DNA of 64,000 bases from Acidobacteriota bacterium (lineage in GTDB: Bacteria > Acidobacteriota > Terriglobia > Terriglobales > Acidobacteriaceae). Shown piece by piece: positions 5,837 to 64,000 of the stretch (position 1 is its first letter; each line of letters opens with the position of its first letter). Below the pieces are notes generated by a model, which saw only the letters and a program-made list of their open reading frames with translations, was not told the DNA's origin and did no database searches. A program made the translations under genes and the position numbers. Where the stretch lies: positions 62,001-126,000 of the forward strand of contig JAJYSV010000001.1 of NCBI GenBank assembly GCA_021793405.1, given 5' to 3'.

Positions 5837-6778
5837 ATGGACGAACGAACTGAGACGACACGAGGGCACTCCTTCTGGTTTTGGCTGAGCCTGGTGGGTG
5901 GACTGTTCCTGTTGTTTGTTGTCCTGTTGTGGACAGCAGCATGGTATACGCTGCGCTCGTCCGGCACATCCGCGGCGGGCTTCAGTGGTTTCGGTTCCGG
6001 TCAAATCGCAGTGGTGGATCTGAAAGGCGTGATTCTTTCAGCGGACAAGACGGACGAGCAGTTGGAAAAGTTTGCCAATGACGATTCCGTGAAGGCGATT
6101 ATCCTGCACATCGACTCTCCCGGCGGCGGCGCGGCCGCATCGCAGGAAATTTATCACGAAGTCTTGCGCATCCGCAGCCAGCACAAGAAGCGGATTGTGG
6201 CATCCATTGCGAGCGTCGGTGCGAGCGGCGCGTACTACATCGCAACCGCGACCGACCGCATCTACGCGAATCAGGCGAGCATTATCGGCAGCGTCGGCGT
6301 CATCATGCAGTGGATCAATTACGGCGACCTGCTGAAATGGGCGAAACTGAAAGATGTGACCCTGAAGGCGGGCGCGTTGAAGGACGCAGGCTCTCCCACG
6401 CGCGCACTGACGCCAGCCGAGCAGGCCTATTTTCAAGGACTGATCGACAACATGCACATGCAGTTCATTCAGGATGTTGCGACTGGGCGACGACTGCCGG
6501 CGAAAGACGTCCAGGGATTGGCGACCGGTCAGGTGTGGACCGGGGAGCAGGCGCTGGGATTGCACTTGATCGACCAGACCGGCGGATTTCGGGTGGCATT
6601 GCTCGACACCGCGCGCGCTGTGGGCATCAAGGGCGAGCCTGAGATTGTCCGTCCCCGCGAGCGTCATCCGGGGTTGATCGACCTGCTGGGAGCGAGTTCG
6701 AAGCTCCAGTTTCCCAATCCGGGAGAATTGCAATCGCTGCTGGAAAAAAGTCCCGGATTCTATTTTTTGTGGCAATAG
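5837..6778 (+). CDS. sppA: Signal peptide peptidase SppA (S49 family)
   Basis: 313 aa, the short SppA form. The ATG at 5837 is chosen because it places one transmembrane anchor (residues about 12-38) at the N-terminus. The catalytic domain shows HIDSPGGGAAASQEI (about 91-105), the nucleophile Ser130 in VGASGAYYIA, and the likely general base Lys182 in LKDAGSPTRA, the standard Ser-Lys dyad. GSVGVIMQ follows as in the family. SppA degrades signal peptides left in the cytoplasmic membrane. The gene sits 66 bp upstream of the HU/IHF-like gene, but each has its own ribosome site. Confidence 0.93.
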   Translation: MDERTETTRGHSFWFWLSLVGGLFLLFVVLLWTAAWYTLRSSGTSAAGFSGFGSGQIAVVDLKGVILSADKTDEQLEKFANDDSVKAIILHIDSPGGGAAASQEIYHEVLRIRSQHKKRIVASIASVGASGAYYIATATDRIYANQASIIGSVGVIMQWINYGDLLKWAKLKDVTLKAGALKDAGSPTRALTPAEQAYFQGLIDNMHMQFIQDVATGRRLPAKDVQGLATGQVWTGEQALGLHLIDQTGGFRVALLDTARAVGIKGEPEIVRPRERHPGLIDLLGASSKLQFPNPGELQSLLEKSPGFYFLWQ

Positions 6779-6844
6779 GTTGTTGCGGTACCGATGCGCA
6801 ATCCCCAAGTTGCATCCTATACTCTGAAATGAAAGGGCCTGTTT

Positions 6845-52753: not shown

Positions 52754-54463
52754 CTAGCCTGGATAAGGGGGTCCCTTTGCCAGCAATGCCTTCAGCGATT
52801 TGTCGTGGCCGTAGATGTCATTGAAGAAATGCACTGAGCCATCTTCTTCAACCACCGCGGTGATGTAGAGAATCAGCACTGGAATCGGCACCTTCAAGTC
52901 GACCTGCTGATTGTTCGGGCCAGTCTCCATCGCGGCTCGCACTTTCTCCGGCGTCCACGGCGGCTGATCGCGCAGCAGATAGGCAGCCAGTTCCGTTGGC
53001 TGTTGCACTCGAATACAACCGTGACTGAAGTCCCGCCGCGACTGCGAAAATAGTTGTTGTGCCGGCGTGCCGTGCAGATACACGCTGTGTTCATTCGGGA
53101 ACAGAAATTTCACCAGCCCGAGAGCATTGTCCGGACCGGGCTTCTGCCGTACCGTGAGTTTTGCGGCGCGCAATTGCGCCAGTACATTGTCATTGATGGA
53201 CCCACTTGTCACCACTGTGCCGCTGTAGGTGACAACTTCAAAATTCTTCTTTGCGATGTAATTTCTGTTTTTCACGATCGCAGGAATAATTTCGCTGCGC
53301 ACGATGCTCCTGGGAACATTCCAGTAAGGACGAAACACAATGTACTGCATGTCTTTCGCAAACACGGGGGTCTGATGTCGGACAGCCTTTCCGACTACGA
53401 CGTTCATTCTCAACGCAACCTTGTGATCCGCGGAAAATACTCGCAGAACGAATTCCGGCACATTGACAACTATTGGCGGCTGCGGGAAAGAAGGCGGCAA
53501 CCAGCGCCAACGCTCCAAAGCATCATCCAACTGTTGTACCCGAAACAACAATGGCACGTTCAGTTGACGGATGGTCTGCTTGCCCAGCTTGCCGTCCACC
53601 ACCAGACCATGACGATCCTGAAACAGCTTCACTCCATCCACCAACGCTTCGGTATAGAGATGCGAGTCTGCGCTCACTGACGCAGTCTGCGAAAGGTCGC
53701 CGAGCAGTTCCAATCGCTGCGTAAGTTGCGCGGTTCCCGGGTATGTGTCGCCCGGAGCTACCGTCTTTCCCGCTTCAGGAAGCAGCGGACCATCGCCTTT
53801 CGCGGCGAGCTGCAGATATCGCTGTAGTGCGACCTCTGTTCGCCTGTAACCGGCGTACGGAGGCTCCACGTTGTTCAGGATGGCCTGCACATTGGCGGCA
53901 TGAATCACATCCTGGGTGACAAATTGCGGCAGATTGTATTTCTTGTTCTGAATTTCGATATCGAAATTGAAATGTTTCGGATTGAGGCGGCCGATGTGCA
54001 GATCAGAGATGTAGCGCAGCGTGCACACCGTGAGCGCCGCTTCAAAATTCGCTTGGATTGTCGGATCTGCTGTGGTACTCAGCGCGGCGAGGCGACCCTG
54101 CCAGCGCGCAGCATCGTAGTCTTCCGGGATCAACCCTTTTTGTCGGCTGCTTTCCAGTGCCTGGATCACTGCAAGTGCCTGCGGCGTAAGGTGCCCGCTG
54201 GCGGTTAGCCACAAGGGAGAAAAGTTAGACGCTTGATACAGCTGCAGAAAATCTGTGCGATGGTCAGAAAAACTGGGCCAACGTAGTACGGAAAGTTTGC
54301 CCGACGCAGCAATTTCCTGCAGGCGGACCGACAGCGGTGTGGCACCGGGCAACGTCATTGCCGGCTGCGTTTGCTGAAGACTCCTCGCAACACCAAACGA
54401 TGCTGCCACACACAACAAAAGCACGAAAGTCCGCGAGTAAGGCCGAAAGGCTGCTGGGAGCAT
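52754..54463 (-). CDS. YcbB/LdtD-type L,D-transpeptidase
   Basis: 569 aa. Signal peptide or anchor at 8-28, a helical scaffold domain (about 60-250), a peptidoglycan-binding domain (VDGVKLFQDRHGLVVDGKLGKQTIRQLN, about 275-302) and the YkuD catalytic domain with HGTPAQQLFSQSRRDFSHGCIRV, nucleophile Cys near 482. The YcbB-specific IVVNVPEFVLRVF and FRPYWNVPRSIV motifs are present. It forms 3-3 cross-links in peptidoglycan. Together with the DUF882 peptidase this is a cell-wall remodelling pair. Confidence 0.93.
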   Translation of the reverse strand: MLPAAFRPYSRTFVLLLCVAASFGVARSLQQTQPAMTLPGATPLSVRLQEIAASGKLSVLRWPSFSDHRTDFLQLYQASNFSPLWLTASGHLTPQALAVIQALESSRQKGLIPEDYDAARWQGRLAALSTTADPTIQANFEAALTVCTLRYISDLHIGRLNPKHFNFDIEIQNKKYNLPQFVTQDVIHAANVQAILNNVEPPYAGYRRTEVALQRYLQLAAKGDGPLLPEAGKTVAPGDTYPGTAQLTQRLELLGDLSQTASVSADSHLYTEALVDGVKLFQDRHGLVVDGKLGKQTIRQLNVPLLFRVQQLDDALERWRWLPPSFPQPPIVVNVPEFVLRVFSADHKVALRMNVVVGKAVRHQTPVFAKDMQYIVFRPYWNVPRSIVRSEIIPAIVKNRNYIAKKNFEVVTYSGTVVTSGSINDNVLAQLRAAKLTVRQKPGPDNALGLVKFLFPNEHSVYLHGTPAQQLFSQSRRDFSHGCIRVQQPTELAAYLLRDQPPWTPEKVRAAMETGPNNQQVDLKVPIPVLILYITAVVEEDGSVHFFNDIYGHDKSLKALLAKGPPYPG

Positions 54464-54559: not shown

Positions 54560-54805
54560 CTAAACCCGCACCAGCAGCGGCACTCTTGCCAGCGAAGCCA
54601 CGTCACGACCATTGACAACCACTCGCGATCCGCGACCGTTGAATTGATACACGGTCTTCGTTCCCGACCCGACCACGGTAAGCCGGCTGTTGCCGGTGTA
54701 TTGAAACAGCGCAGCACTGTACATGGCGCGATCTACGCGAACGGTACCAGGATAAGTCTGCGGCTCCTGGGTCAGTATTCTTTTTCCATTTCCGCAACAG
54801 GACAT
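54560..54805 (-). CDS. Small 81-aa protein, unknown
   Basis: The product is beta-rich (GTVRVDRAMYSAALFQYTGNSRLTVVGSGTKTVYQF, SRVVVNGRDVASL) with a Cys-rich start MSCCGNGKR. Its start lies inside the end of the upstream membrane-protein gene (34 bp overlap), so the two are coupled. Similar small proteins are found beside phage-like or DUF1360-like genes, but no family is recognised. Confidence 0.68.
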   Translation of the reverse strand: MSCCGNGKRILTQEPQTYPGTVRVDRAMYSAALFQYTGNSRLTVVGSGTKTVYQFNGRGSRVVVNGRDVASLARVPLLVRV

Positions 54806-55131
54806 GTCGACTTCTCCTCTCGAATCGGTTCTTCATCGAACCATGCGCCTTCGGGTTCTTCGTCGGTAAGACGGTTGGCCAGGATTGCCGCTCCAGAAAG
54901 CGCCAGCCACAATGTCACTCGGTCTCCCCACCCCGATCCCAGCATCATCGCAAATGGAGCGGACACCCACAGGCTAAGGCAATAGAAGCAGTCGGTCGCG
55001 CCCGAAAGAGACATTCGCCGCAACCAATATCGGCAGCGGGCAAATATCCTTAGCGGACCGTCTTCGGCGTGCAACAAATGCGTCAGCCTCCACACAGCGA
55101 GCATGGCAAGCACAATTCGTAACGTAGTCAT
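54772..55131 (-). CDS. DUF1360-like membrane protein
   Basis: 119 aa from the ATG at 55131. TTLRIVLAMLAVWRLTHLLHAEDGPLRIFARCRYWL, then ATDCFYCLSLWVSAPFAMMLG: the WRLTHLLxxEDGP and CxxCLSxWVS motifs match DUF1360-type proteins with two to three transmembrane helices. The CFYC pair may bind metal or form a disulfide. Function unknown. It is upstream of and overlaps the 81-aa gene. Confidence 0.75.
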   Translation of the reverse strand: MTTLRIVLAMLAVWRLTHLLHAEDGPLRIFARCRYWLRRMSLSGATDCFYCLSLWVSAPFAMMLGSGWGDRVTLWLALSGAAILANRLTDEEPEGAWFDEEPIREEKSTCPVAEMEKEY

Positions 55132-55195: not shown

Positions 55196-57328
55196 CTAAA
55201 GCGACGTCTGCAGGCAGAAGCCGACCGAGGCAGACGCGTAGTTGTTTAATCCCGGCGAGCTGTTGACGATGCTGCGATCCCACACGTTTAACTGCACGAC
55301 GTAGCCGCATTTTGGCAGCAACTTTGTAGTGAGCGTCCATGGGTTGCCGACAGAAGGCAGCGGTGCCGTCGGCGCAATTCCACTTGCAGGCGTCAGAGGT
55401 CCCGAGTATGGCTGCGAGCCCATGCTGAACCGTCCAAAGTTGAGGTCATAGGCGACATAATGACCATTCAACAGAGTGCCAATGACGAACTGACTGCAAT
55501 CGAGATTGTTGTCCAGATGCAAAGCGGCCTGTGGCGCTGTATTGTCGAGTTGCAGCAGGTGCACATCTGGCAGCGATCCCAGCACGGGATTGTCCGCCAT
55601 GTCCGCAATCTGCAGCGTGATCTGCCACAAATCATCGCCACTCGTGTCCCACTCGCCCAGCAGTGAATCAATATTCAGCGTGGGATCCATGTAGGTGAAA
55701 TATCCATTCACATCGGGAGCGCTGGTGTAGGTTGTCCCGTCCCAACGCGTCAACAACAACGGCGTTGTCAGCGTGATTGGAGATCCGCCGCCGGTGTTTT
55801 GTACTGTCAGCTTGTACTTGTATCCCACGAACAATTCACCTTGGACAGCCACTCTGCCGCCAAACGGGCATGCGCGCCCATGGGCATCGGCCGCCGTGTT
55901 GGTCAAGGCAAACACTGCGTTGGAGGTTGTCTGACCCGTTGTGCTGTCGATCATGCTGGTCGGGATTCCGCCCAGGATGCTGATCGTCGGCGTCAGGTAA
56001 TTCGGCTTCGAGCCGGGTTGAATCTGCACATGCGTATCCAGCAAGTTGCCCCAGCTTGTCAGCGCGTTCGGATCTGTTGTGGAAGGCGCAACCGCCCAGG
56101 AAAGTACAGCACGCACCCGACCGATTTTAGGCGTGTTGCATGGATTGCGATGATTGCTCAGGTTGACGGGCAACACCGCGGAGTACACCAGGCCTCCGGC
56201 TGGAATGCTGGCAATATCGTGCACTTGCACACCCACGGTTCCCAGGTAGGTGTATTCGCAGGTGTTGTCCCAGTCCACCCAGAAGGCAACATATTCCGTG
56301 CTGCCCGCCGTGCACAGTCCGCCGCCGTACCCGGTGGGCCGCTTGATCACGAATGTCGCAACCAGCCGCTCCAGTCCGTAGCCGCCTTCGAGTCCAAGAC
56401 ATTCCAGTTGCTCGAATGACACATCCGCGTCGACCTCGGCCAAGCTGGTCAGCGCCGATTGCCAGTCCAGTCCCACGTTTTTCCATTCTGCGATATTGAG
56501 TTGAATCGAACTGGGATCGGCTGCCTTGGCATTCAATGCCTGATGGAGTTGCGCAAAACCAAAGCGGTGAGACGGTACCGCGCTGTTGGCCGGGGTGGCT
56601 TTCTTCTCCGACTGCGGCTGATATAACTTCGCCAACTGCTCCACGGATAACGGCCCGGGATCGGGCAACGGAATCGGAATCTGCAGCGCCTGTTCAAGTT
56701 CTTGCGGCGGCAGAATCTTCTTCACGTTCTCGTCGACAGTGGCTGCGATTTCTTTCAGGAAGAGTGGTCTGGGTCGTATCTGGATTTGCGCATCCAAAGT
56801 ATTGCCCCATACCGGTGTGTAGGATGGATCGCCTGCCGTCGGGATCGCGTTCCAGGACAGAATCGCGCGAACTTTTGGCAGCATTGGAAAAACGCACCAG
56901 TTCGACTTTGGAGACAATTGGACGGAGGCGGCATAGCTCAGTGGCTTTTCAGCATCCTTGTGGCAGTCCGTCTGCTCCGCAATATCGTGCACATTGATCG
57001 CTGCGACGCCCGCATCTTCCCAACCCGCACCGTAGTCAACGAAAAATCTAACGTACTCGAATGATCCGTTTTGACAGAGCGAGCCATTGTACCCAGTGGA
57101 TTGATTCACCTGCACCACCGCTTCCAGAATGTTGGTCGCTGGATTGAATCCCAGGCAGGTCACTTGCTCATAAAACACATCGTTCGCAATTGAAACGACG
57201 GGTTTATATTCGCTGTCCTTCAGGTTGCCGAAGTAATTTGGATTGCTTGCCACCAGACCGGAAAAGTTGAGCCTGTGCGTCTTCACCGCTTCCAGGGCCG
57301 CCGACTCATTGCTCGTAATTTTCGCCAT
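55196..57328 (-). CDS. Large 710-aa protein with two homologous beta-rich domains, unknown
   Basis: The ATG at 57328 has GGAGGAAATC upstream and fits the start better than the longer open frame. Residues about 45-180 and 340-475 are homologous: DVFYEQVTCLGFNPATN / DVSFEQLECLGLEGG, then STGYNGSLCQNGSFEYVRFFVD / PTGYGGGLCTAGSTEYVAFWVD, INVHDIA / VQVHDIA and VRAILSWN / VRAVLSWA. A C-terminal 200 residues form a third beta-rich part. No signal peptide. Unrecognised family; it is the last gene of the CHAT/sigma block in the same direction. Confidence 0.8.
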   Translation of the reverse strand: MAKITSNESAALEAVKTHRLNFSGLVASNPNYFGNLKDSEYKPVVSIANDVFYEQVTCLGFNPATNILEAVVQVNQSTGYNGSLCQNGSFEYVRFFVDYGAGWEDAGVAAINVHDIAEQTDCHKDAEKPLSYAASVQLSPKSNWCVFPMLPKVRAILSWNAIPTAGDPSYTPVWGNTLDAQIQIRPRPLFLKEIAATVDENVKKILPPQELEQALQIPIPLPDPGPLSVEQLAKLYQPQSEKKATPANSAVPSHRFGFAQLHQALNAKAADPSSIQLNIAEWKNVGLDWQSALTSLAEVDADVSFEQLECLGLEGGYGLERLVATFVIKRPTGYGGGLCTAGSTEYVAFWVDWDNTCEYTYLGTVGVQVHDIASIPAGGLVYSAVLPVNLSNHRNPCNTPKIGRVRAVLSWAVAPSTTDPNALTSWGNLLDTHVQIQPGSKPNYLTPTISILGGIPTSMIDSTTGQTTSNAVFALTNTAADAHGRACPFGGRVAVQGELFVGYKYKLTVQNTGGGSPITLTTPLLLTRWDGTTYTSAPDVNGYFTYMDPTLNIDSLLGEWDTSGDDLWQITLQIADMADNPVLGSLPDVHLLQLDNTAPQAALHLDNNLDCSQFVIGTLLNGHYVAYDLNFGRFSMGSQPYSGPLTPASGIAPTAPLPSVGNPWTLTTKLLPKCGYVVQLNVWDRSIVNSSPGLNNYASASVGFCLQTSL

Positions 57329-57421
57329 GATTTCCTCCGTGCAGAGTTTGGCTGCGCTCGCGGTGAATGCAAAGACACGCCTGCGTTCGCACGCACGAAG
57401 CGCGCGCAGTCGCCGCATTTC

Positions 57422-57453
57422 CGTTGCAATCGGGTCTAGATCCGATTGCAACG
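57422..57453. promoter_or_regulatory. 12-bp-arm palindrome before the 710-aa gene
   Basis: CGTTGCAATCGG (57422-57433) and CCGATTGCAACG (57442-57453) pair perfectly around GTCTAGAT. It lies 94 bp upstream of the 710-aa start and 248 bp after the CHAT stop. No T-run, so an operator or 5' mRNA hairpin is more likely than a terminator. The rest of 57329-57700 has no gene. Confidence 0.65.
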
Positions 57454-57700
57454 AATTTCCACCAGAACCCTGTTCATAACGATGGTGCTGAAATACCGTC
57501 GCACGTTTCACTCGCACGAAAATAAATCATCGGATTGGCTCGCGGAGACACGGAGAGGATGCGTTCGGGAATGGGCGCCTCTTCGAGGCCGCCGTGAGGA
57601 TTCAGGTTGTTGTGGTTACGCAGGGATTTCAAGCGAGGACGACCTGTTCGGGGACCGTAATCCAGCCGCGAGTGAGAGCAGTGCCCACACGAAGCGGTTC

Positions 57701-60163
57701 TTACCCACCCGCATATAGCTGAAAGGCGGCCCAATACAAGGGCTTGCGGTACACCGACTGAGAATGAATAAGCGACAGCTTCGCCGTTCTGAGCGCTGCA
57801 TCGGGTTGGTGACCGGTTTGGATCTCGCTATAAAGCCGATCCATCAGCTGCGGCATGGCCGCGTCGCTGGCTTCCCATAACGCTCCGATGGCGTTATGCG
57901 CTCCAGCGCGCAGAAATGCCCAGGACAGCCCGACAAGTCCTTCTCCCGCATACGCACGGAGGCCGGATCCATAGCAGGTCGAGATGGTGACCAGCCGGGC
58001 ATGGAGTGGCTTGTGCACAATTTCTCTGGCGTACAGTTTGAAGGTATCCGGATGCCCTCTCGGTGGGGAAAGTATCACAGCGGAATCCATAGGGCTCAAT
58101 CGGCTCGCAGTACCATGGGCAACGAAATGAATGTAAGAAAAATCGCCAGGTTGGCCTGCGGTATACGCCACCGGCACAGCACTTGCCCGCGTCAGCACCA
58201 CTTCGCGATCGGGCGCAAAATGCTTTTCGATGCTGTGAATCTCAGCCTCCGCATTCAGCAGCCTTGGATAATCGCTTCCGGGCGAGATCGGATCGCCAAT
58301 CAATAACATCCCGTTGCCGCCTGCGCCATCATCCTGCGAATCCAGAGCGGAGATCAACCGTATGGCGTTGGTATTCGCAATCGTGACATCTTCGATCCAA
58401 TAGTGGACACCGGTCTTTCCAGGAGCGAGAAGGGTTTCAAAGTTCAATTCATCCAGGCTTCCATCTGAGATCAAAACGACCCTTGCACCCTTGCGCAAGT
58501 TCGCTGCCGCGGGAGCGACAAGGATATCGAAAAGATATCGAGCGTCTTCATCTTCCTGGCGGATGGGATCAATCGATCGAAGGATGGCTCTCTGATAGTT
58601 TTTTACGTGTGAGTCGATCTCCGACTTCCCGGGAAGTCGAAAGATGCGGATGTGATGGCCATCGATCGCCCATAAGTAAGATTGCTCTGGACAAAGCGCA
58701 TAGAACAGGATGGTTGCGTTCAGTTTTCGAGCGACTGCCTGGGCATTTACGGATCGCTGATGAACCACCCAGGACGCATGGCTTGTGATCCCCAGACCTT
58801 CTTCCAGGGTCTGTGCGCGGCCTCTATCCAGCAGCTGCAACGCATCTCGCGAACGATGCGACTCGATGAGGAAGTGGGCGTAATCCTTGTAGAGAGAGTC
58901 CGCATTTGCAAAGAACGGAAGCTTCATCTCATCGTCTTTAAGAGAAGAACGTTGCGCTTCAAAGGTAGCCACGGATTTTCTGAACCAGACCTCGGCCGCG
59001 CGCTTATTGTGGACCCGTGCATAGTACTTTGCGACCGCATTCTCGACCTCTTCACGAAGCGACGGCATCGTCACAGGATCTCGATATACCTGCATCAGTA
59101 GGCCGATGGCGTCCGGGCCTGATTTGCTGCGAGCTGCCAGAAGACCCTGCAGAAACAAGACATCCACCACTGCGGACTGACTGCCCCAGGCATGTGCCGC
59201 CTGGAGTGCTTCCAGGCTCTGTCGCTCCGCCAGATCGAATTGGCGGCGTTGAAAAAAGAGAAACCCCAGCTCCGTATGCGTCGTTGCGATTAACTCTTTG
59301 TCATTCACCGCTTGTGCTTCGCTCAATGCTCGCCGGTAGTTTGCCTCAGCCGATTTCAGATCTCCCAGACGATAAAAAGACAAACCACTGTTGGTGGCCC
59401 AGACGATCTGGTCATGGACTGAACCAAGCTGCCTTGCTTGTTGTTCTGCCTGCTGAAAGTCGAAAAGCGATTTCTCAAAGTCTCCAAGCTTGTAATAGGC
59501 CCACCCTGCATTGCCCAGCGCTAACTCCAGGGCCAACCGGGTATCCGTCGAGCGAGCGATCTGGGACGCATCTTCAAATCTGGCCAGGGCTTCGTCGTAT
59601 TCTTCGGAACGCAGGGCAACTGTACCCAGATTCATGAGGTCTGTTGTCTCCAGGAACTTGTCGCCATGCTGCCTCGCGAACTCCAGGCTTCTCTTAAATG
59701 AATCCGAAGCGGTGGCAAGCTGATCACGGTGGACGGCAATCAGTCCTTCTGTTTGCAGTAGCTCTCCCTGCAACGCAGAACCACTTTCCGTGGAAAGTTG
59801 TTGCGCCGTTTGTAACTCGTGATTGGATCGGATGGGTTGATTGAGACGGGTGTGAGCCAGACTCAGGAGCAATTGCCGTTTGATCTCAATATCGGCAGCC
59901 GCAAAGGAAGTTGGATGATAGCCGCTAAGTAACTGCTCCACCCGCGGGCTGTTGCCCTGATAGGTAAGGATCTCCGCTTCCAACAAGCGAAACTTGATAT
60001 CCCAATTTCGATTTCTCCCGGAGAACTCTTTGCAAGCTTCTGCCGCATCCAGCTGTGCGTCGCCCAAATCACCCCGCAGGAATTCAGTATAAATTTTCTC
60101 GTAGGTAGACTCAGGAGAAAGGCACATGCTACGCTGGCAGCCTGAAAGAGCAAGAGCAGCCAC
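57701..60163 (-). CDS. TPR-CHAT protease
   Basis: 820 aa from the GTG at 60163, which has GGGAGG 4 nt upstream; this is the only in-frame start after the previous stop, and it leaves a very short lipoprotein-like signal (ALALSGC). Residues about 50-430 are TPR repeats (GNAGWAYYKLGDFEKSLFDFQQAEQQARQLG, HTELGFLFFQRRQFDLAERQSLEAL). The C-terminal CHAT domain has the catalytic His in FSYIHFVAHGTASRL (about 684) and Cys in LVTISTCYGSGLRAYAGEGLVGLSWAFLRAGA (about 730). Predicted active peptidase, downstream of sigma/anti-sigma genes. Confidence 0.9.
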   Translation of the reverse strand: MAALALSGCQRSMCLSPESTYEKIYTEFLRGDLGDAQLDAAEACKEFSGRNRNWDIKFRLLEAEILTYQGNSPRVEQLLSGYHPTSFAAADIEIKRQLLLSLAHTRLNQPIRSNHELQTAQQLSTESGSALQGELLQTEGLIAVHRDQLATASDSFKRSLEFARQHGDKFLETTDLMNLGTVALRSEEYDEALARFEDASQIARSTDTRLALELALGNAGWAYYKLGDFEKSLFDFQQAEQQARQLGSVHDQIVWATNSGLSFYRLGDLKSAEANYRRALSEAQAVNDKELIATTHTELGFLFFQRRQFDLAERQSLEALQAAHAWGSQSAVVDVLFLQGLLAARSKSGPDAIGLLMQVYRDPVTMPSLREEVENAVAKYYARVHNKRAAEVWFRKSVATFEAQRSSLKDDEMKLPFFANADSLYKDYAHFLIESHRSRDALQLLDRGRAQTLEEGLGITSHASWVVHQRSVNAQAVARKLNATILFYALCPEQSYLWAIDGHHIRIFRLPGKSEIDSHVKNYQRAILRSIDPIRQEDEDARYLFDILVAPAAANLRKGARVVLISDGSLDELNFETLLAPGKTGVHYWIEDVTIANTNAIRLISALDSQDDGAGGNGMLLIGDPISPGSDYPRLLNAEAEIHSIEKHFAPDREVVLTRASAVPVAYTAGQPGDFSYIHFVAHGTASRLSPMDSAVILSPPRGHPDTFKLYAREIVHKPLHARLVTISTCYGSGLRAYAGEGLVGLSWAFLRAGAHNAIGALWEASDAAMPQLMDRLYSEIQTGHQPDAALRTAKLSLIHSQSVYRKPLYWAAFQLYAGG

Positions 60164-60174
60164 CAGTCCTCCCG

Positions 60175-61017
60175 CTACGAAGGAGGCATAGTGCTGCCGT
60201 TGATACTTAGTACAGACGCGCTTAAGTGCGCTTTCACGTTGCAGCCGAGCTCGGCCCGAACCATGGTGAGTTGAATCGAATGGGGAAAGGCCAGGATTTC
60301 TCCGAGAAAAATTCTGCCAAAATCTGGAATTTCCACGAAGTGGCCGATCGTCTTGCCAGGAAATGTGCCTTCTACGCCATCCACCAGGGAACATAGAACA
60401 CATCCGTCTTTTTTCTGCTCACGCTTCTCGTCCATCCAACCATACCGTTGCAACGCCCATTCCCAGCCGCTTCGGTTCGCACGGTCGGTTATGCTTTGGA
60501 CTATTTCGCGGGCCTGTCCGTGACCTGTTTGCAAAAACACCGGCCCCAGGATCCGCGAGGAGTTATTATCCTCCTCCGAACCGGTACCCATCAAGCGCAA
60601 ATTCAGTCGGGGACAAACTTCACTTCCGCCAATGCGTAATCCCTCGAAGTGGCTGCCGGCAAATGAGATACTCGCCGCACTTCCCGCGCGGGGATGCTCT
60701 ACAGATATTTGAGCCACGATCTTTTCTGCTGTGACGATTTCAAGAATGTTCAGCCCTTCGACAACAGAGGTCGCCAGCGTCGACCATGGCCCATCCTCAG
60801 CAATCGTGCGTCCGGATACTCGTGTATAGGCGGAACGAAAGGAGACGATCTCCTTGAAATTCAATGCTTCCATGCGGTGTGTTAGATAACCACCCACTGG
60901 GGGCAGGGATATCGAGGATGCATCTGGAACGATCGCTTCAAAAGGCGCTTCGATGAACCCGCCAAGCGAGTTGGCATCCGCATGGTAACAAAACACTTTT
61001 TTGGAGTTGGATTGCAT
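60175..61017 (-). CDS. Unknown 280-aa beta-rich protein of the CHAT block
   Basis: The ATG at 61017 has GAGGAG 5 nt upstream. Beta-rich throughout: ISLPPVGGYLTHRMEALNF, TLATSVVEGLNILEIVTAEKIVAQISVEH, ISFAGSHFEGLRIGGSEV and HFVEIPDFGRIFLGEILAFPHSIQLTMVRAEL. The alternation of ATS/VEGL and FEGLRIGG strands recalls choice-of-anchor-P-like domains, but this is a weak resemblance. No signal peptide. The stop lies 12 bp before the CHAT start, so the two are tightly linked, and it may be a CHAT substrate or partner. Confidence 0.78.
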   Translation of the reverse strand: MQSNSKKVFCYHADANSLGGFIEAPFEAIVPDASSISLPPVGGYLTHRMEALNFKEIVSFRSAYTRVSGRTIAEDGPWSTLATSVVEGLNILEIVTAEKIVAQISVEHPRAGSAASISFAGSHFEGLRIGGSEVCPRLNLRLMGTGSEEDNNSSRILGPVFLQTGHGQAREIVQSITDRANRSGWEWALQRYGWMDEKREQKKDGCVLCSLVDGVEGTFPGKTIGHFVEIPDFGRIFLGEILAFPHSIQLTMVRAELGCNVKAHLSASVLSINGSTMPPS

Positions 61018-61040
61018 ATCCACTCCTCGAGGCGCAAATG

Positions 61041-61730
61041 TTATTTCTGAGTCTTCAGGACGAAGCTATACCGCGCCAGGTCGACTGAAGTTTCTGGATT
61101 GGGCGACCCTGCATTCCCCTGCACCAGCAGCGAATATTTTCCATCCATTCTGTTTGCCGGGGGGATGCTGATCGGAACCGTATCTTTCGCCTGTTGCGCC
61201 GACACCTGGACCTGCCATGCGAGCTTGCCGGCTGGAGAATACAGCGAACATGTATAGGTCGAAAAACGGTCTTGCGTCGGGATATCCATGAGCAACAAGA
61301 ACGGATGGCCAGCAGGAACAGTCATCGATGGAATTGCACCGCCCCGGCTGTCGCCGCCGATCAATGAGACGGAAGGTAAAATCTCTGGCGAGCTGAATTG
61401 CGCGATTTGCTGGTGCAACCGCGGAACGACCATTGTGTTCTGATACGCAATGAAAAACAGGCAGGCCGCCAACGCCGGCACGACAAAGGACGGCCTCCAC
61501 AGCCATGATCCTCTCGTCTTGGGGATAGCAACAGGCAATCGTTTTGTAGCGGAAGCAGCCTTGAATTCGGCCTTTGCCGCATCCAGAAATGCGGTGGTAG
61601 CGCGCAGATCCATCGCGCATTCTACGCACTCGAAATAGTGCTCTTCGAATTCGGCGCGCAACTCGGGGGTCAACTCGTTGAGTACATATTTCTCGACCGC
61701 CATGGTCTGCATCGCATCATGATGATTCAT
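61041..61730 (-). CDS. Anti-sigma factor with zinc-finger HC2 domain
   Basis: 229 aa from the ATG at 61730. N-terminal zf-HC2: VEKYVLNELTPELRAEFEEHYFECVECAMDL with HxxxCxxC (about 31-38), then one transmembrane helix near residues 79-97 (PSFVVPALAACLFFIAYQN) and a periplasmic part of 130 residues (GHPFLLLMDIPTQDRFSTYTC...). Zinc-finger anti-sigma factors sequester ECF sigma factors at the membrane. It lies 53 bp after the sigma gene and is the obvious partner. Confidence 0.9.
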   Translation of the reverse strand: MNHHDAMQTMAVEKYVLNELTPELRAEFEEHYFECVECAMDLRATTAFLDAAKAEFKAASATKRLPVAIPKTRGSWLWRPSFVVPALAACLFFIAYQNTMVVPRLHQQIAQFSSPEILPSVSLIGGDSRGGAIPSMTVPAGHPFLLLMDIPTQDRFSTYTCSLYSPAGKLAWQVQVSAQQAKDTVPISIPPANRMDGKYSLLVQGNAGSPNPETSVDLARYSFVLKTQK

Positions 61731-61783
61731 CAATCACGTCCTACTTGTATAGTGCCAAACGTGCCACGAACGTTTCATCCTCT

Positions 61784-62362
61784 TTAAAAAGAATCCTTTT
61801 CGCCCACCTGCTGAACATATAAAGACTTGAATGACTGCTTTGCGCGGTGGACCAGGACCCTGAGATATTCTCGGGTAATTCCAAACTCAGCGCACACAAT
61901 ATCTTTGTCGCGTTCATCCAGCAGCACCGCCTCAAGCAGGTTCCGATCCCGCTCCGTGAGCTGATTCAGAATCTTCCGCACTGCCTTGGTCGTGTCCTCT
62001 GTTTCCAGCATGTTGAGCACAGTTTGCCCCTGATGAACTAACACTGCTTCCGGTTCTTCATCTAGGCTCGATTCCTTTTTGCTTTTGGAACGATAGTGCT
62101 CCAGCAGGACGTTATTGCAAATCGAATTCACAAAGGCTCCCAGCCGCTCCGCCTGTCGGACGCCGCCTTCGGCTCGCAACAAGCCAATCACTCGGGCGAA
62201 GGTCTCCTGGCGCACGTCTTCGATCGCCTCGCTGGAGCTCAGTCGGGACCGCAGTTTCAACCGGATGAGTTCACTGAAATAGCCCACGAAATGGGCTTCG
62301 ATTCGAGCATCACCCGAACGAAGTTTTTCGACATAGGATGCGTCAAACGCGAAGAACTGCAC
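61784..62362 (-). CDS. ECF-like RNA polymerase sigma factor
   Basis: 192 aa. Region 2: YFSELIRLKLRSRLSSSEAIEDVRQETFARVIGLL (about 29-63); region 4: LTERDRNLLEAVLLDERDKDIVCAEFGITREYLRVLVHRAKQSFK (about 135-179). Linker rich in Glu/Lys. Typical ECF size and layout. The upstream frame includes no earlier start. It heads the block sigma, anti-sigma, 280-aa protein, CHAT protease, 710-aa protein and probably transcribes it. Confidence 0.92.
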   Translation of the reverse strand: MQFFAFDASYVEKLRSGDARIEAHFVGYFSELIRLKLRSRLSSSEAIEDVRQETFARVIGLLRAEGGVRQAERLGAFVNSICNNVLLEHYRSKSKKESSLDEEPEAVLVHQGQTVLNMLETEDTTKAVRKILNQLTERDRNLLEAVLLDERDKDIVCAEFGITREYLRVLVHRAKQSFKSLYVQQVGEKDSF

Positions 62363-62431
62363 GCGCCGTTCCTCCGATTCCGCTGAAGCCTAGGCCCCAA
62401 TCTTACACCGGGAGGAACAGCATACAAATAT

Positions 62432-62830
62432 CTATGTTGTTGAAGATTCGCTTCGTTCCGCGTTATTGGAGGATTGCTGGATTGCGGCCATCTGATCGTA
62501 TCGATCCAGAAAATCCATCACGCTGTCAAAAAATGTTGCGCGGTAGAAAAAGACGGGTTCGTTTGCCATCTCACTGTCGTTCGCAACGGGAAAAGAACCT
62601 GTTTCTTGGCTTGCCTTGCCATGCATGCAGCTTTTAGACCCCGCTGCAACCGCGCGACCCGACAGAATGCTTTCTGCTGGAGCTATTTGACCGGTCGCAG
62701 AAAGCTTTCCGTCGAATCGTGCTGCCTTGCGTGTCAAGAGAACCGAAGCAGAAGAATCTCCAAAGGAGGCAAAGTCGTAATTATTCCGATAAGAACGAGT
62801 CGGGTACTTCCGATGATTAGTGGATTTCAT
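62432..62830 (-). CDS. Possible 132-aa protein upstream of the sigma gene
   Basis: The product is polar with a short helical end (FYRATFFDSVMDFLDRYDQMAAIQQSSNN). Composition is plausible, but there is no clear ribosome site or family. Lies 69 bp before the sigma gene on the same strand. Could be a small regulatory protein or a chance frame. Confidence 0.42.
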   Translation of the reverse strand: MKSTNHRKYPTRSYRNNYDFASFGDSSASVLLTRKAARFDGKLSATGQIAPAESILSGRAVAAGSKSCMHGKASQETGSFPVANDSEMANEPVFFYRATFFDSVMDFLDRYDQMAAIQQSSNNAERSESSTT

Positions 62831-63185
62831 GTAGGCAACCCTCTACGGCTGGATAGTGAACGCTGTCTGGAGAACGTTACAAACTTCCAAATGGATGTGA
62901 GCACGAAATTGTTGTGCTTCTGAAATAAATAAAACCAACCTTCATCAGAAGGAGCCATGTCCCCCCGATTCGCGTTTTGACCAATGCGAATCCGATCAAA
63001 TGCTCCCACCCCCCCTGCCCTGTCGCCTGCGATTGAGAAAAAAGTTAGGTATTGTGAAACGCTTCGGTCCGCCGACACACTATCAGCTCAGTGGAGATGG
63101 ACCGGGCCAGATTCTTCAATATCTGAGTTCCTCGACAACTTAAAGAAGCCAGTTGTCCAAACCCGCCTGTTCCAGGGGAGTGACT
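62831..63185. other. Divergent intergenic region
   Basis: About 355 bp between the possible 132-aa gene and the plus-strand gene at 63186. No RNA gene, long repeat or strong hairpin recognised. Confidence 0.45.
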
Positions 63186-64000
63186 ATGGGATATACCGAC
63201 CATTGCGACCTGTACGCTGCCGTCCAGGAGGACGGTATCAACCTCGTTGCGCAACATGTCATGCGACAACGTCCGTCGTGGTTCAATTACGCGACGCAAT
63301 ACGTCAGCGATCATCCACAAATTGCCTGCGTGCCGGTGGCACATACCATCGACGTTACCCACTACAGCAATCCGCTCTTCAAGGTTGTCAGTCCGGTTCC
63401 GATTCTGGGCGCGGACTCGCCACCGGTAGGTCTCAATTTCTGTGTGCAGCTGGTCAAGGCCCAAGTGGACTTTCATCCGGGAAACGTAGTGACCCTGCCG
63501 GCGGCACTGAGCCCGCCGCTCGCCGCGCAGCATCTCGCCATGCATGTGAAGATCTGCGGAGGAATGGATTGCCCGAGTGAGTTTGTAAAAGACTTCCTGC
63601 CGACACCGACTTCCTATGGCGAAGCGACCAACATCCGGCAGCCACAGCAAGTGGTCCCGCCCACACGCAAACTTGTCTGTTTCTGCCTGGATGCGTACCT
63701 GGTGGCCCACATCGGGGTACAGTCGATCGCAGGAAAACCCTCTCTCGTGGGAATCGTCGACAGCGTGGATGTCGTCGGAATTGAGCCGAAGGGGCTCTCC
63801 GAAAACATCAACTGCTATCTGAAGACGACCTTCGAATTGATGTTGAAAGAGAAGCTGATCTTCCCCATATCCACCATGCTCTTCGACCTGCCGCTGCTGA
63901 GCCTCGCCACCATTACGGCGCAGCTCACCCCGAATCCTCCCATCCCCAACAACCCTGCAATTGACGACGATCAATTGAAGGTATTCATCACGATTACGGT
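63186..64000 (+). CDS. Unknown protein, runs off right edge
   Basis: At least 271 codons. The ATG at 63186 has GGGGAG 5 nt upstream. Product soluble and beta-rich: CDLYAAVQEDGINLVAQHVMRQRPSWFNYAT, then ACVPVAHTIDVTHYSNPLFKVV, LNFCVQLVKAQVDFHPGN, RKLVCFCLDAYLVAHIGVQ and ISTMLFDLPLLSLATI. No signal peptide or catalytic motif. It is divergent from the sigma/CHAT block and shares its beta-rich, Cys-containing style with the 280-aa and 710-aa proteins, so it may be part of the same system (inference). Confidence 0.72.
   Translation, partial: MGYTDHCDLYAAVQEDGINLVAQHVMRQRPSWFNYATQYVSDHPQIACVPVAHTIDVTHYSNPLFKVVSPVPILGADSPPVGLNFCVQLVKAQVDFHPGNVVTLPAALSPPLAAQHLAMHVKICGGMDCPSEFVKDFLPTPTSYGEATNIRQPQQVVPPTRKLVCFCLDAYLVAHIGVQSIAGKPSLVGIVDSVDVVGIEPKGLSENINCYLKTTFELMLKEKLIFPISTMLFDLPLLSLATITAQLTPNPPIPNNPAIDDDQLKVFITIT

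What the first reader, a model, noticed from the sequence alone, without database searches (positions are those of the whole stretch)
55196..62362. Sigma / anti-sigma / CHAT-protease block, a candidate proteolysis-driven signalling pathway
In transcription order: ECF sigma, membrane zinc-finger anti-sigma, unknown 280-aa protein, TPR-CHAT protease with both catalytic residues, and a 710-aa protein with a duplicated domain. CHAT proteases are known to release sigma factors in type III-E CRISPR (Craspase) by cutting an adaptor. Here no CRISPR is present, but the parts suggest that a trigger sensed by the TPR/CHAT protein could change sigma activity.
Basis: partly seen in the sequence, partly recalled or inferred. 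Interest (0 to 1): 0.75.

Follow-up and report, generated by a model that had tools for sequence, protein, structure and literature searches.

The report
Sigma-factor operon with periplasmic caspase-like protease
Soil Acidobacteria carry a strictly conserved four-gene switch in which a gene-activating sigma factor and its membrane-bound inhibitor are always paired with an exported caspase-like (CHAT) protease, and the promoter sequence this switch very probably uses can be read from the DNA, so it looks like an envelope-signalling system distinct from the CRISPR one it was compared with.

Summary
The five genes are present as described. Four of them (ECF sigma, zf-HC2 anti-sigma with one TM helix, "P280", TPR-CHAT) form a fixed cassette in Acidobacteriota. 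Among the 80 closest TPR-CHAT relatives, 70 have it complete and 8 are cut by contig ends. The 710-aa protein (P773) is a frequent partner with its own promoter. His and Cys are intact in 104/104 CHAT copies, and about 102/104 carry an N-terminal export or anchor segment, mostly a lipobox, so the protease is predicted to be extracytoplasmic. That argues against a Craspase-style cut in the cytosol. I found the likely sigma promoter, TGAAACG-N16-CACTAT: 140 sites at 108 cassette loci against 2 for the reversed pattern, in 19/22 cassette-bearing versus 5/98 cassette-free genomes. In the window it precedes anti-sigma-P280-CHAT, P773 and a divergent gene. In two other acidobacterial families an ECF sigma gene precedes a fused zinc finger-TM-TPR-CHAT protein, which supports joint function. 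Best model: an ECF/anti-sigma envelope pathway in which a periplasmic CHAT protease regulates, perhaps by cutting, the anti-sigma, and switches on exported-type proteins. Cleavage is untested. A CHAT association is published for ECF54, described as lacking an anti-sigma. New variant of a known kind.

The parts
61784..62362 (-). ECF-type sigma factor, 192 aa, GTG start with GGAGGAAC ribosome site
   Evidence: TIGR02937 E 4.5e-13; orthologues in all complete cassettes
61041..61730 (-). zf-HC2 anti-sigma factor, 229 aa: cytosolic HX3CX2C zinc finger, one TM helix (about residues 77-96), C-terminal periplasmic beta-type domain
   Evidence: Pfam zf-HC2 above cut-off; H31, C35, C38 conserved in 99% of 89 rows; hydropathy
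60175..61017 (-). P280: 280-aa beta-rich protein without signal peptide, distant relative of choice-of-anchor P exported proteins
   Evidence: NF040603 matched by 20 of 21 members, best E 2e-12; AF2 pLDDT 87, no PDB fold match
57701..60244 (-). TPR-CHAT protease with N-terminal lipoprotein-type signal (...VAGGLVAALALSGC, Cys codon 60139-60137); start uncertain, CTG at 60244 the best candidate
   Evidence: CHAT 5e-41, TPR_12 1e-16; His/Cys 104/104, export segment 102/104
61750..61777 (-). ECF promoter TGAAACGTTCGTGGCACGTTTGGCACTA between sigma and anti-sigma, driving anti-sigma-P280-CHAT
   Evidence: exact motif; same position in 54 of 85 loci with an independently trained matrix, 0 of 85 in controls
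57483..57510 (-). ECF promoter TGAAACGTGCGACGGTATTTCAGCACCA upstream of the 710-aa gene
   Evidence: exact motif; an equivalent site lies upstream of 13 P773 genes
63055..63082 (+). ECF promoter TGAAACGCTTCGGTCCGCCGACACACTA for the divergent gene
   Evidence: exact motif; equivalent site and gene in a congener, G009
62400..62407 (-). extended -10 (TGTAAGAT) of a primary-sigma-type promoter for the sigma gene
   Evidence: recurrent TGnTA(A/T)ACT-type element upstream of sigma in most loci, by inspection
55196..57328 (-). P773: 710-aa beta-rich protein with duplicated domain, no signal peptide; associated regulon gene
   Evidence: adjacent to the cassette in 14 loci, upstream or downstream; no Pfam match
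54772..55131 (-). small DUF1360-family protein that follows P773 as a pair
   Evidence: 22 family hits next to P773 or sigma genes; DUF1360 E 1e-6 in relative L240
63187..64000 (+). divergent target gene (274 aa, MGYTDHCDLYAAV...), running past the window end
   Evidence: starts 104 nt after an exact promoter motif; no Pfam match

Best explanation
This is an envelope-sensing ECF sigma/anti-sigma pathway built around an exported CHAT protease. The sigma factor is held at the inner membrane by a single-pass zf-HC2 anti-sigma with a periplasmic domain. TPR-CHAT is exported and tethered as a lipoprotein, or by a TM or signal segment, in the periplasm. When its TPR/CHAT part senses an envelope or extracellular trigger, it relieves the anti-sigma. 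The most likely way is a cut in the anti-sigma's periplasmic part, after which ordinary intramembrane proteolysis would free sigma. Sigma then uses TGAAACG-N16-CACTAT promoters to transcribe anti-sigma-P280-CHAT (feedback), P773-DUF1360, neighbouring genes and a few distant ones, many of which encode exported-type proteins. Well supported by sequence: the cassette, intact catalytic dyad, predicted extracytoplasmic CHAT, and the promoter and its link to the cassette. Inferred: CHAT acts upstream of the anti-sigma; it does so by cleavage; the trigger; the role of P280.
For: Synteny: 70 of 80 closest TPR-CHAT relatives complete, 8 more cut by contig ends, also in other families of the phylum. Distance-matrix correlation r 0.74-0.88 for all six protein pairs, permutation maximum 0.16. 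His and Cys 104/104; export segment 102/104, about 82 with a lipobox-like Cys. Promoter: 140 sites in 108 loci versus 2 for the reversed pattern; 19/22 cassette-positive versus 5/98 cassette-negative genomes, Fisher p 1e-14; a matrix trained on target-gene sites finds the site before the anti-sigma gene in 54/85 loci and in 0/85 of each of three controls. Fusion evidence: in two other acidobacterial families an ECF sigma gene is followed by one protein of HX3CX2C finger, TM, TPR and CHAT, which puts CHAT outside.
Against: No cleavage data. The most conserved periplasmic Arg of the anti-sigma (SRG, R129, 72 of 89) is replaced by W/Y/F in 15, which suits a structural residue better than a cut site. 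CHAT lies in the sigma-controlled transcript and so could be an output rather than the activator. P280, the fourth invariant part, has no role in the simplest model. Lipoprotein export rests on sequence pattern and hydropathy only, with no dedicated signal-peptide predictor, and the CHAT start codon is unresolved. The zinc finger in the fusions is an HX3CX2C motif, not a Pfam hit. Genome counts are not corrected for phylogeny.
Confidence: 0.45

Rival explanations
1. CHAT is an output, not the switch. Sigma and its anti-sigma respond to another trigger, and the induced periplasmic CHAT protease processes envelope or exported proteins (P280, P773, other regulon members) or acts as a damage-response protease.
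For: CHAT is transcribed from the sigma-type promoter together with the anti-sigma and P280; many targets are exported-type proteins, some themselves peptidases.
Against: Fusion of the finger-TM anti-sigma-like part to TPR-CHAT next to a sigma gene in other families suggests a regulatory role. CHAT is near-invariant in the cassette whereas target genes vary.
Confidence: 0.3
2. CHAT's TPR/CHAT body works as a sensor or scaffold for the anti-sigma without cutting it; proteolysis is by housekeeping proteases.
For: TPR arrays are binding modules, and in the fusions CHAT sits as the periplasmic part of the anti-sigma-like protein.
Against: Both catalytic residues are invariant in 104/104 copies, which a pure scaffold would not need.
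Confidence: 0.12
3. Craspase-like pathway: cytosolic CHAT cuts a cytosolic adaptor (P280 or P773) and releases sigma.
For: Same broad ingredients as type III-E loci (TPR-CHAT, ECF sigma, unknown proteins; PMC10028731); P280 lacks a signal peptide.
Against: Conserved export/lipobox segment on CHAT; a membrane anti-sigma is already present; no Cas7-11-like neighbour in the gene listings; P280 has no sequence match to a solved protein and resembles exported choice-of-anchor P proteins.
Confidence: 0.08
4. The genes are co-inherited neighbours without a shared pathway.
For: Synteny alone can persist by chance in close relatives.
Against: Retention across several families of the phylum with overlapping genes, a shared promoter motif and genome-wide co-occurrence of motif and cassette.
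Confidence: 0.05

Closest known systems
ECF sigma with membrane zf-HC2 anti-sigma controlled by periplasmic proteolysis (E. coli RpoE-RseA-DegS, B. subtilis RsiW)
   Same: ECF sigma, single-pass anti-sigma, predicted extracytoplasmic protease, autoregulated anti-sigma gene, TGAAAC-type -35
   Different: The candidate protease is a TPR-CHAT (caspase-like) lipoprotein encoded in the operon rather than a PDZ serine protease; an extra conserved protein, P280; a small, mostly local regulon
ECF54 group (CHAT, subtilase and carboxypeptidase proteins in the genetic context; PMC8999054)
   Same: ECF sigma with CHAT proteins in its neighbourhood; proteolytic control proposed
   Different: [quoted passage not shown] here a membrane anti-sigma is always present between sigma and CHAT
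Type III-E CRISPR CASP/Craspase (Csx29 TPR-CHAT, Csx30, Csx31, CASP-sigma; PMC10028731)
   Same: TPR-CHAT protease genetically tied to an ECF-like sigma and to proteins of unknown function
   Different: No CRISPR effector; CHAT predicted extracytoplasmic; inhibitor is a membrane zinc-finger protein; no Csx30-like partner detected
Choice-of-anchor P family (NF040603)
   Same: P280 members match the profile (20 of 21)
   Different: P280 lacks the signal peptide expected of exported members, and the window copy is below the family cut-off (22.6 versus 27 bits)

Membership tests
ECF sigma / zf-HC2 anti-sigma system | sigma regions 2 and 4, ECF superfamily score | tested here: met
   TIGR02937 49.2 bits against a cut-off of 42.9
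ECF sigma / zf-HC2 anti-sigma system | adjacent anti-sigma with zinc finger and TM helix | tested here: met
   zf-HC2 23.8 bits against 22.2; H31/C35/C38 at 99%; TM near residue 77
ECF sigma / zf-HC2 anti-sigma system | autoregulated ECF-type promoter | tested here: met
   TGAAACG-N16-CACTAT before the anti-sigma or sigma gene in most loci; recognition by this sigma is inferred
Periplasmic regulated proteolysis (DegS/RseA-like) | extracytoplasmic site-1-type protease | tested here: met
   predicted export segment in 102 of 104 and catalytic dyad in 104 of 104; location by sequence only
Periplasmic regulated proteolysis (DegS/RseA-like) | the protease cuts the anti-sigma | not testable with these tools
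   needs biochemistry; no strictly conserved cut-site candidate found
Type III-E CRISPR CASP/Craspase | Cas7-11 (gRAMP) effector and CRISPR array next to the CHAT gene | tested here: not met
   no such gene among the neighbours listed for 23 cassette loci; no separate array search was run
Type III-E CRISPR CASP/Craspase | cytosolic Csx29-type TPR-CHAT | tested here: not met
   conserved export/lipobox segment
Type III-E CRISPR CASP/Craspase | Csx30-like sigma inhibitor | tested here: inconclusive
   P280 profile finds no PDB sequence at E up to 10, but presence of Csx30 chains in that library was not checked; fold search has no significant match
ECF54 | CHAT protein in context, no anti-sigma | tested here: not met
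   a membrane anti-sigma is present in every complete cassette
ECF54 | sigma sequence belongs to the ECF54 subfamily | not tested
   no ECF-group models were available
Choice-of-anchor P family | profile score over cut-off and signal peptide | tested here: not met
   window copy 22.6 bits against 27; no N-terminal hydrophobic segment

The most novel reading that the evidence does not exclude
Acidobacteriota use exported TPR-CHAT caspase-like proteases as dedicated site-1 proteases (or protease-sensors) for ECF anti-sigma factors, found either as a separate lipoprotein in a sigma/anti-sigma/P280/CHAT cassette or fused to the anti-sigma finger. This would be a signal-transduction class not previously described.
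Probability: 0.4. Interest if true: 0.8.

Novelty: new variant of a known kind. Interest (0 to 1): 0.62.

Why it matters
CHAT proteases are known from CRISPR and death-like conflict systems, and their role outside them is largely open. A fixed operon with intact catalytic residues, a membrane anti-sigma and a readable promoter motif gives a small, testable system for a caspase-like protease in bacterial envelope signalling, in a poorly studied soil phylum. It also supplies a predicted regulon and a natural fusion that can be tested directly. No paper describing this cassette was found in the open library searched.

Tried and rejected
(1) Craspase homology: rejected on topology and lack of an effector gene among the neighbours. 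(2) P280 fold by AF2 plus Foldseek against PDB: good model, no significant match. (3) P773 structure: low confidence (pLDDT 56), so no fold search was run. (4) A conserved SRG motif in the anti-sigma as a CHAT cut site: Arg is replaced by aromatics in 15 of 89, so not claimed. (5) Sigma operon driven only by its own sigma: many loci, the window included, show a primary-sigma extended -10 before sigma, while 26 loci carry the ECF motif upstream of sigma. (6) Defence-system library: only TPR-type and marginal matches. (7) A first version of the P773 query was out of frame and its hits were discarded. (8) A first automated count of lipoboxes mis-set the region and was replaced by an alignment-based one. 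(10) The 3-5 kb of DNA after distal motifs was called by a crude ORF rule, so only first genes close to the motif are trusted. (11) Literature searches for ECF sigma plus CHAT found only Craspase papers and the ECF54 remark.
Full report
OBSERVATION. The sigma factor scores over the ECF superfamily cut-off. The anti-sigma has a zf-HC2 finger over its cut-off and one hydrophobic segment. The 280-aa protein (P280) has no Pfam match. The next gene is TPR repeats plus a CHAT domain (E 5e-41). The 710-aa protein (P773) has no Pfam match and a repeated N-terminal domain. The genome has one other CHAT gene, elsewhere and without such neighbours.

CONSERVATION. P280 was found in 22 of 120 related genomes. 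Fetching those neighbourhoods showed sigma, anti-sigma, P280 and TPR-CHAT in the same order and strand in nearly all of them, and again in a phylum-wide sample that includes other families. A scan of the species-level genome collection with the TPR-CHAT alignment returned 80 best relatives, all titled as Acidobacteria or their subgroups. Seventy carry the full cassette, eight of the other ten run into a contig end, and two (L166, L167) lack detectable sigma and anti-sigma. In one small group (L103, L104) the anti-sigma gene follows CHAT instead. Pairwise distance matrices of the four proteins over 89 loci correlate at r 0.74-0.88, with a permutation maximum of 0.16. P773 is next to the cassette in 14 loci, upstream of sigma in most and downstream in the window's genus, and is followed by a small DUF1360-family gene in most of them.

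TOPOLOGY. Reading the CHAT frame across the P280 stop codon shows a positively charged stretch, a hydrophobic stretch and usually a Cys (window: KYQRQHYASFVAGGLVAALALSGC). Aligned over 104 distinct copies, 102 have a strong hydrophobic segment at this place, about 82 with a lipobox-like Cys and most of the rest with an AxA-type ending. The catalytic His and Cys are present in all 104. TPR-CHAT is therefore predicted to lie outside the cytoplasm. This rests on sequence pattern; no dedicated predictor was available. P280 has no such segment. P280 members match the choice-of-anchor P profile (20 of 21, best E 2e-12), although the window copy is below the family cut-off. Its AF2 model is good (pLDDT 87) with no significant PDB match.

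PROMOTER AND REGULON. Upstream of P773 genes there is a common element, TGAAACG-N16-CACTAT, of ECF promoter type. At 108 distinct cassette loci (1.54 Mb) the pattern TGAAAC-N17-CACYA occurs 140 times against 2 for the reversed pattern. It is placed between sigma and anti-sigma, before sigma, before P773, before divergent neighbours, or just after CHAT. In the window three exact copies lie at 57483-57510 (-), 61750-61777 (-) and 63055-63082 (+); they are half of the six in the whole genome. A matrix trained only on target-gene sites finds the site before the anti-sigma gene in 54 of 85 loci, and in none of 85 shuffled sequences, P280-upstream windows or CHAT-upstream windows. Across 120 genomes the strict motif is present in 19 of 22 cassette-positive and 5 of 98 cassette-negative genomes (Fisher p 1e-14; not corrected for relatedness). 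It is absent from 20 loci of other CHAT genes. The sigma gene itself often has a primary-sigma extended -10. The simplest reading is that this sigma recognises the motif; binding has not been shown.

TARGETS. In the window: anti-sigma-P280-CHAT, P773 with its DUF1360 partner, and a divergent 274-aa gene starting at 63187 that is conserved with its motif in a congener. Elsewhere, first genes after distal motifs include a multicopper oxidase/galactose-oxidase-like fusion, a BNR-repeat protein, a glutamine deamidase-family protein, and a 711-aa protein followed by a DUF1360 gene. Others look like secreted peptidases or FAD oxidases by inspection of the sequence only. Most resemble exported or surface proteins, several without a recognisable signal peptide. 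ORF calling there was crude and some links will be chance.

RELATED ARCHITECTURES. Among 20 other acidobacterial CHAT loci, three (L286, L288, L295) have an ECF-like sigma gene directly before a TPR-CHAT without an evident export segment, and a fourth (L283) has one nearby on the same strand. In two families (L298, L300) an ECF-like sigma gene (TIGR02937 E 6e-8 and 4e-9, below the curated cut-off) precedes one long protein of HX3CX2C finger, TM helix, TPR and CHAT. Pfam does not call the finger, so this is motif evidence. It nevertheless argues that anti-sigma and CHAT functions belong together, with CHAT on the outer face.

MECHANISM. I favour a periplasmic CHAT that relieves the anti-sigma, probably by cutting it, with ordinary intramembrane proteolysis following (0.45). 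The main rival is CHAT as a sigma-induced output protease (0.3). Neither is shown. A conserved Arg in the anti-sigma is not strict enough to be named the cut site. The role of P280 is open: it could be an inhibitor, a substrate or an exported component.

KNOWN SYSTEMS. Type III-E Craspase couples a TPR-CHAT to an ECF-like sigma through Csx30 in the cytosol (PMC10028731). The defining CRISPR effector and the cytosolic protease are not met here. [quoted passage not shown] here an anti-sigma is always present, and subgroup membership was not tested. The closest working analogy, from general knowledge and as cited in PMC10028731, is DegS/RseA. No paper on this cassette was found in the open-access library searched; subscription papers and ECF-classification supplements were not available, so prior mention cannot be excluded.

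VERDICT. Observation confirmed; interpretation partly supported; a new variant of a known kind, with a clear experimental test.

Noticed in passing
window 60137-60244 (-): TPR-CHAT has no ATG/GTG/TTG start before its signal sequence and overlaps the end of P280; a CTG at 60244 sits where some relatives have TTG or GTG. A conserved non-canonical start or translational coupling is possible, though P280's reading frame may itself explain the conserved NTG.
   Followed up: partly
L298:4255-8635, L300:4040-8120: ECF-like sigma gene followed by a single protein of HX3CX2C finger, TM helix, TPR and CHAT: an apparent anti-sigma/CHAT fusion in other acidobacterial families.
   Followed up: partly
L286:4824-8263, L288:1457-5076, L295:1781-6072: ECF-like sigma gene directly before a TPR-CHAT without an export segment or an intervening anti-sigma gene, perhaps like ECF54.
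   Followed up: no
window 62432-62830 (-), site 62854-62881 (-): 132-aa ORF upstream of sigma, preceded by a one-mismatch copy of the ECF motif (TGTAACG...CACTA).
   Followed up: no
L240:2054-4846 (-): A 711-aa protein distinct from P773 but of the same size, also followed by a DUF1360 gene and preceded by the motif: a possible recurring large protein/DUF1360 pair.
   Followed up: partly
L233 (-), motif at reverse-strand position 6801: The motif lies 422 nt before a gene resembling a contractile-injection-system sheath protein, followed by a tube-like protein; the link is weak because of the distance.
   Followed up: no
L230 (-), motif at reverse-strand position 5840: The motif lies 449 nt before two consecutive genes that look like caspase-type (C14) proteins by inspection.
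   Followed up: no
L040:8906-11649, G026: The cassette's TPR-CHAT is split into two frames in this finished genome, so the gene may be decaying there or carry a sequence error.
   Followed up: no
window 52754-54463 (-): L,D-transpeptidase with Scaffold, YkuD and peptidoglycan-binding domains downstream of the block; ordinary envelope gene, no motif in front.
   Followed up: no
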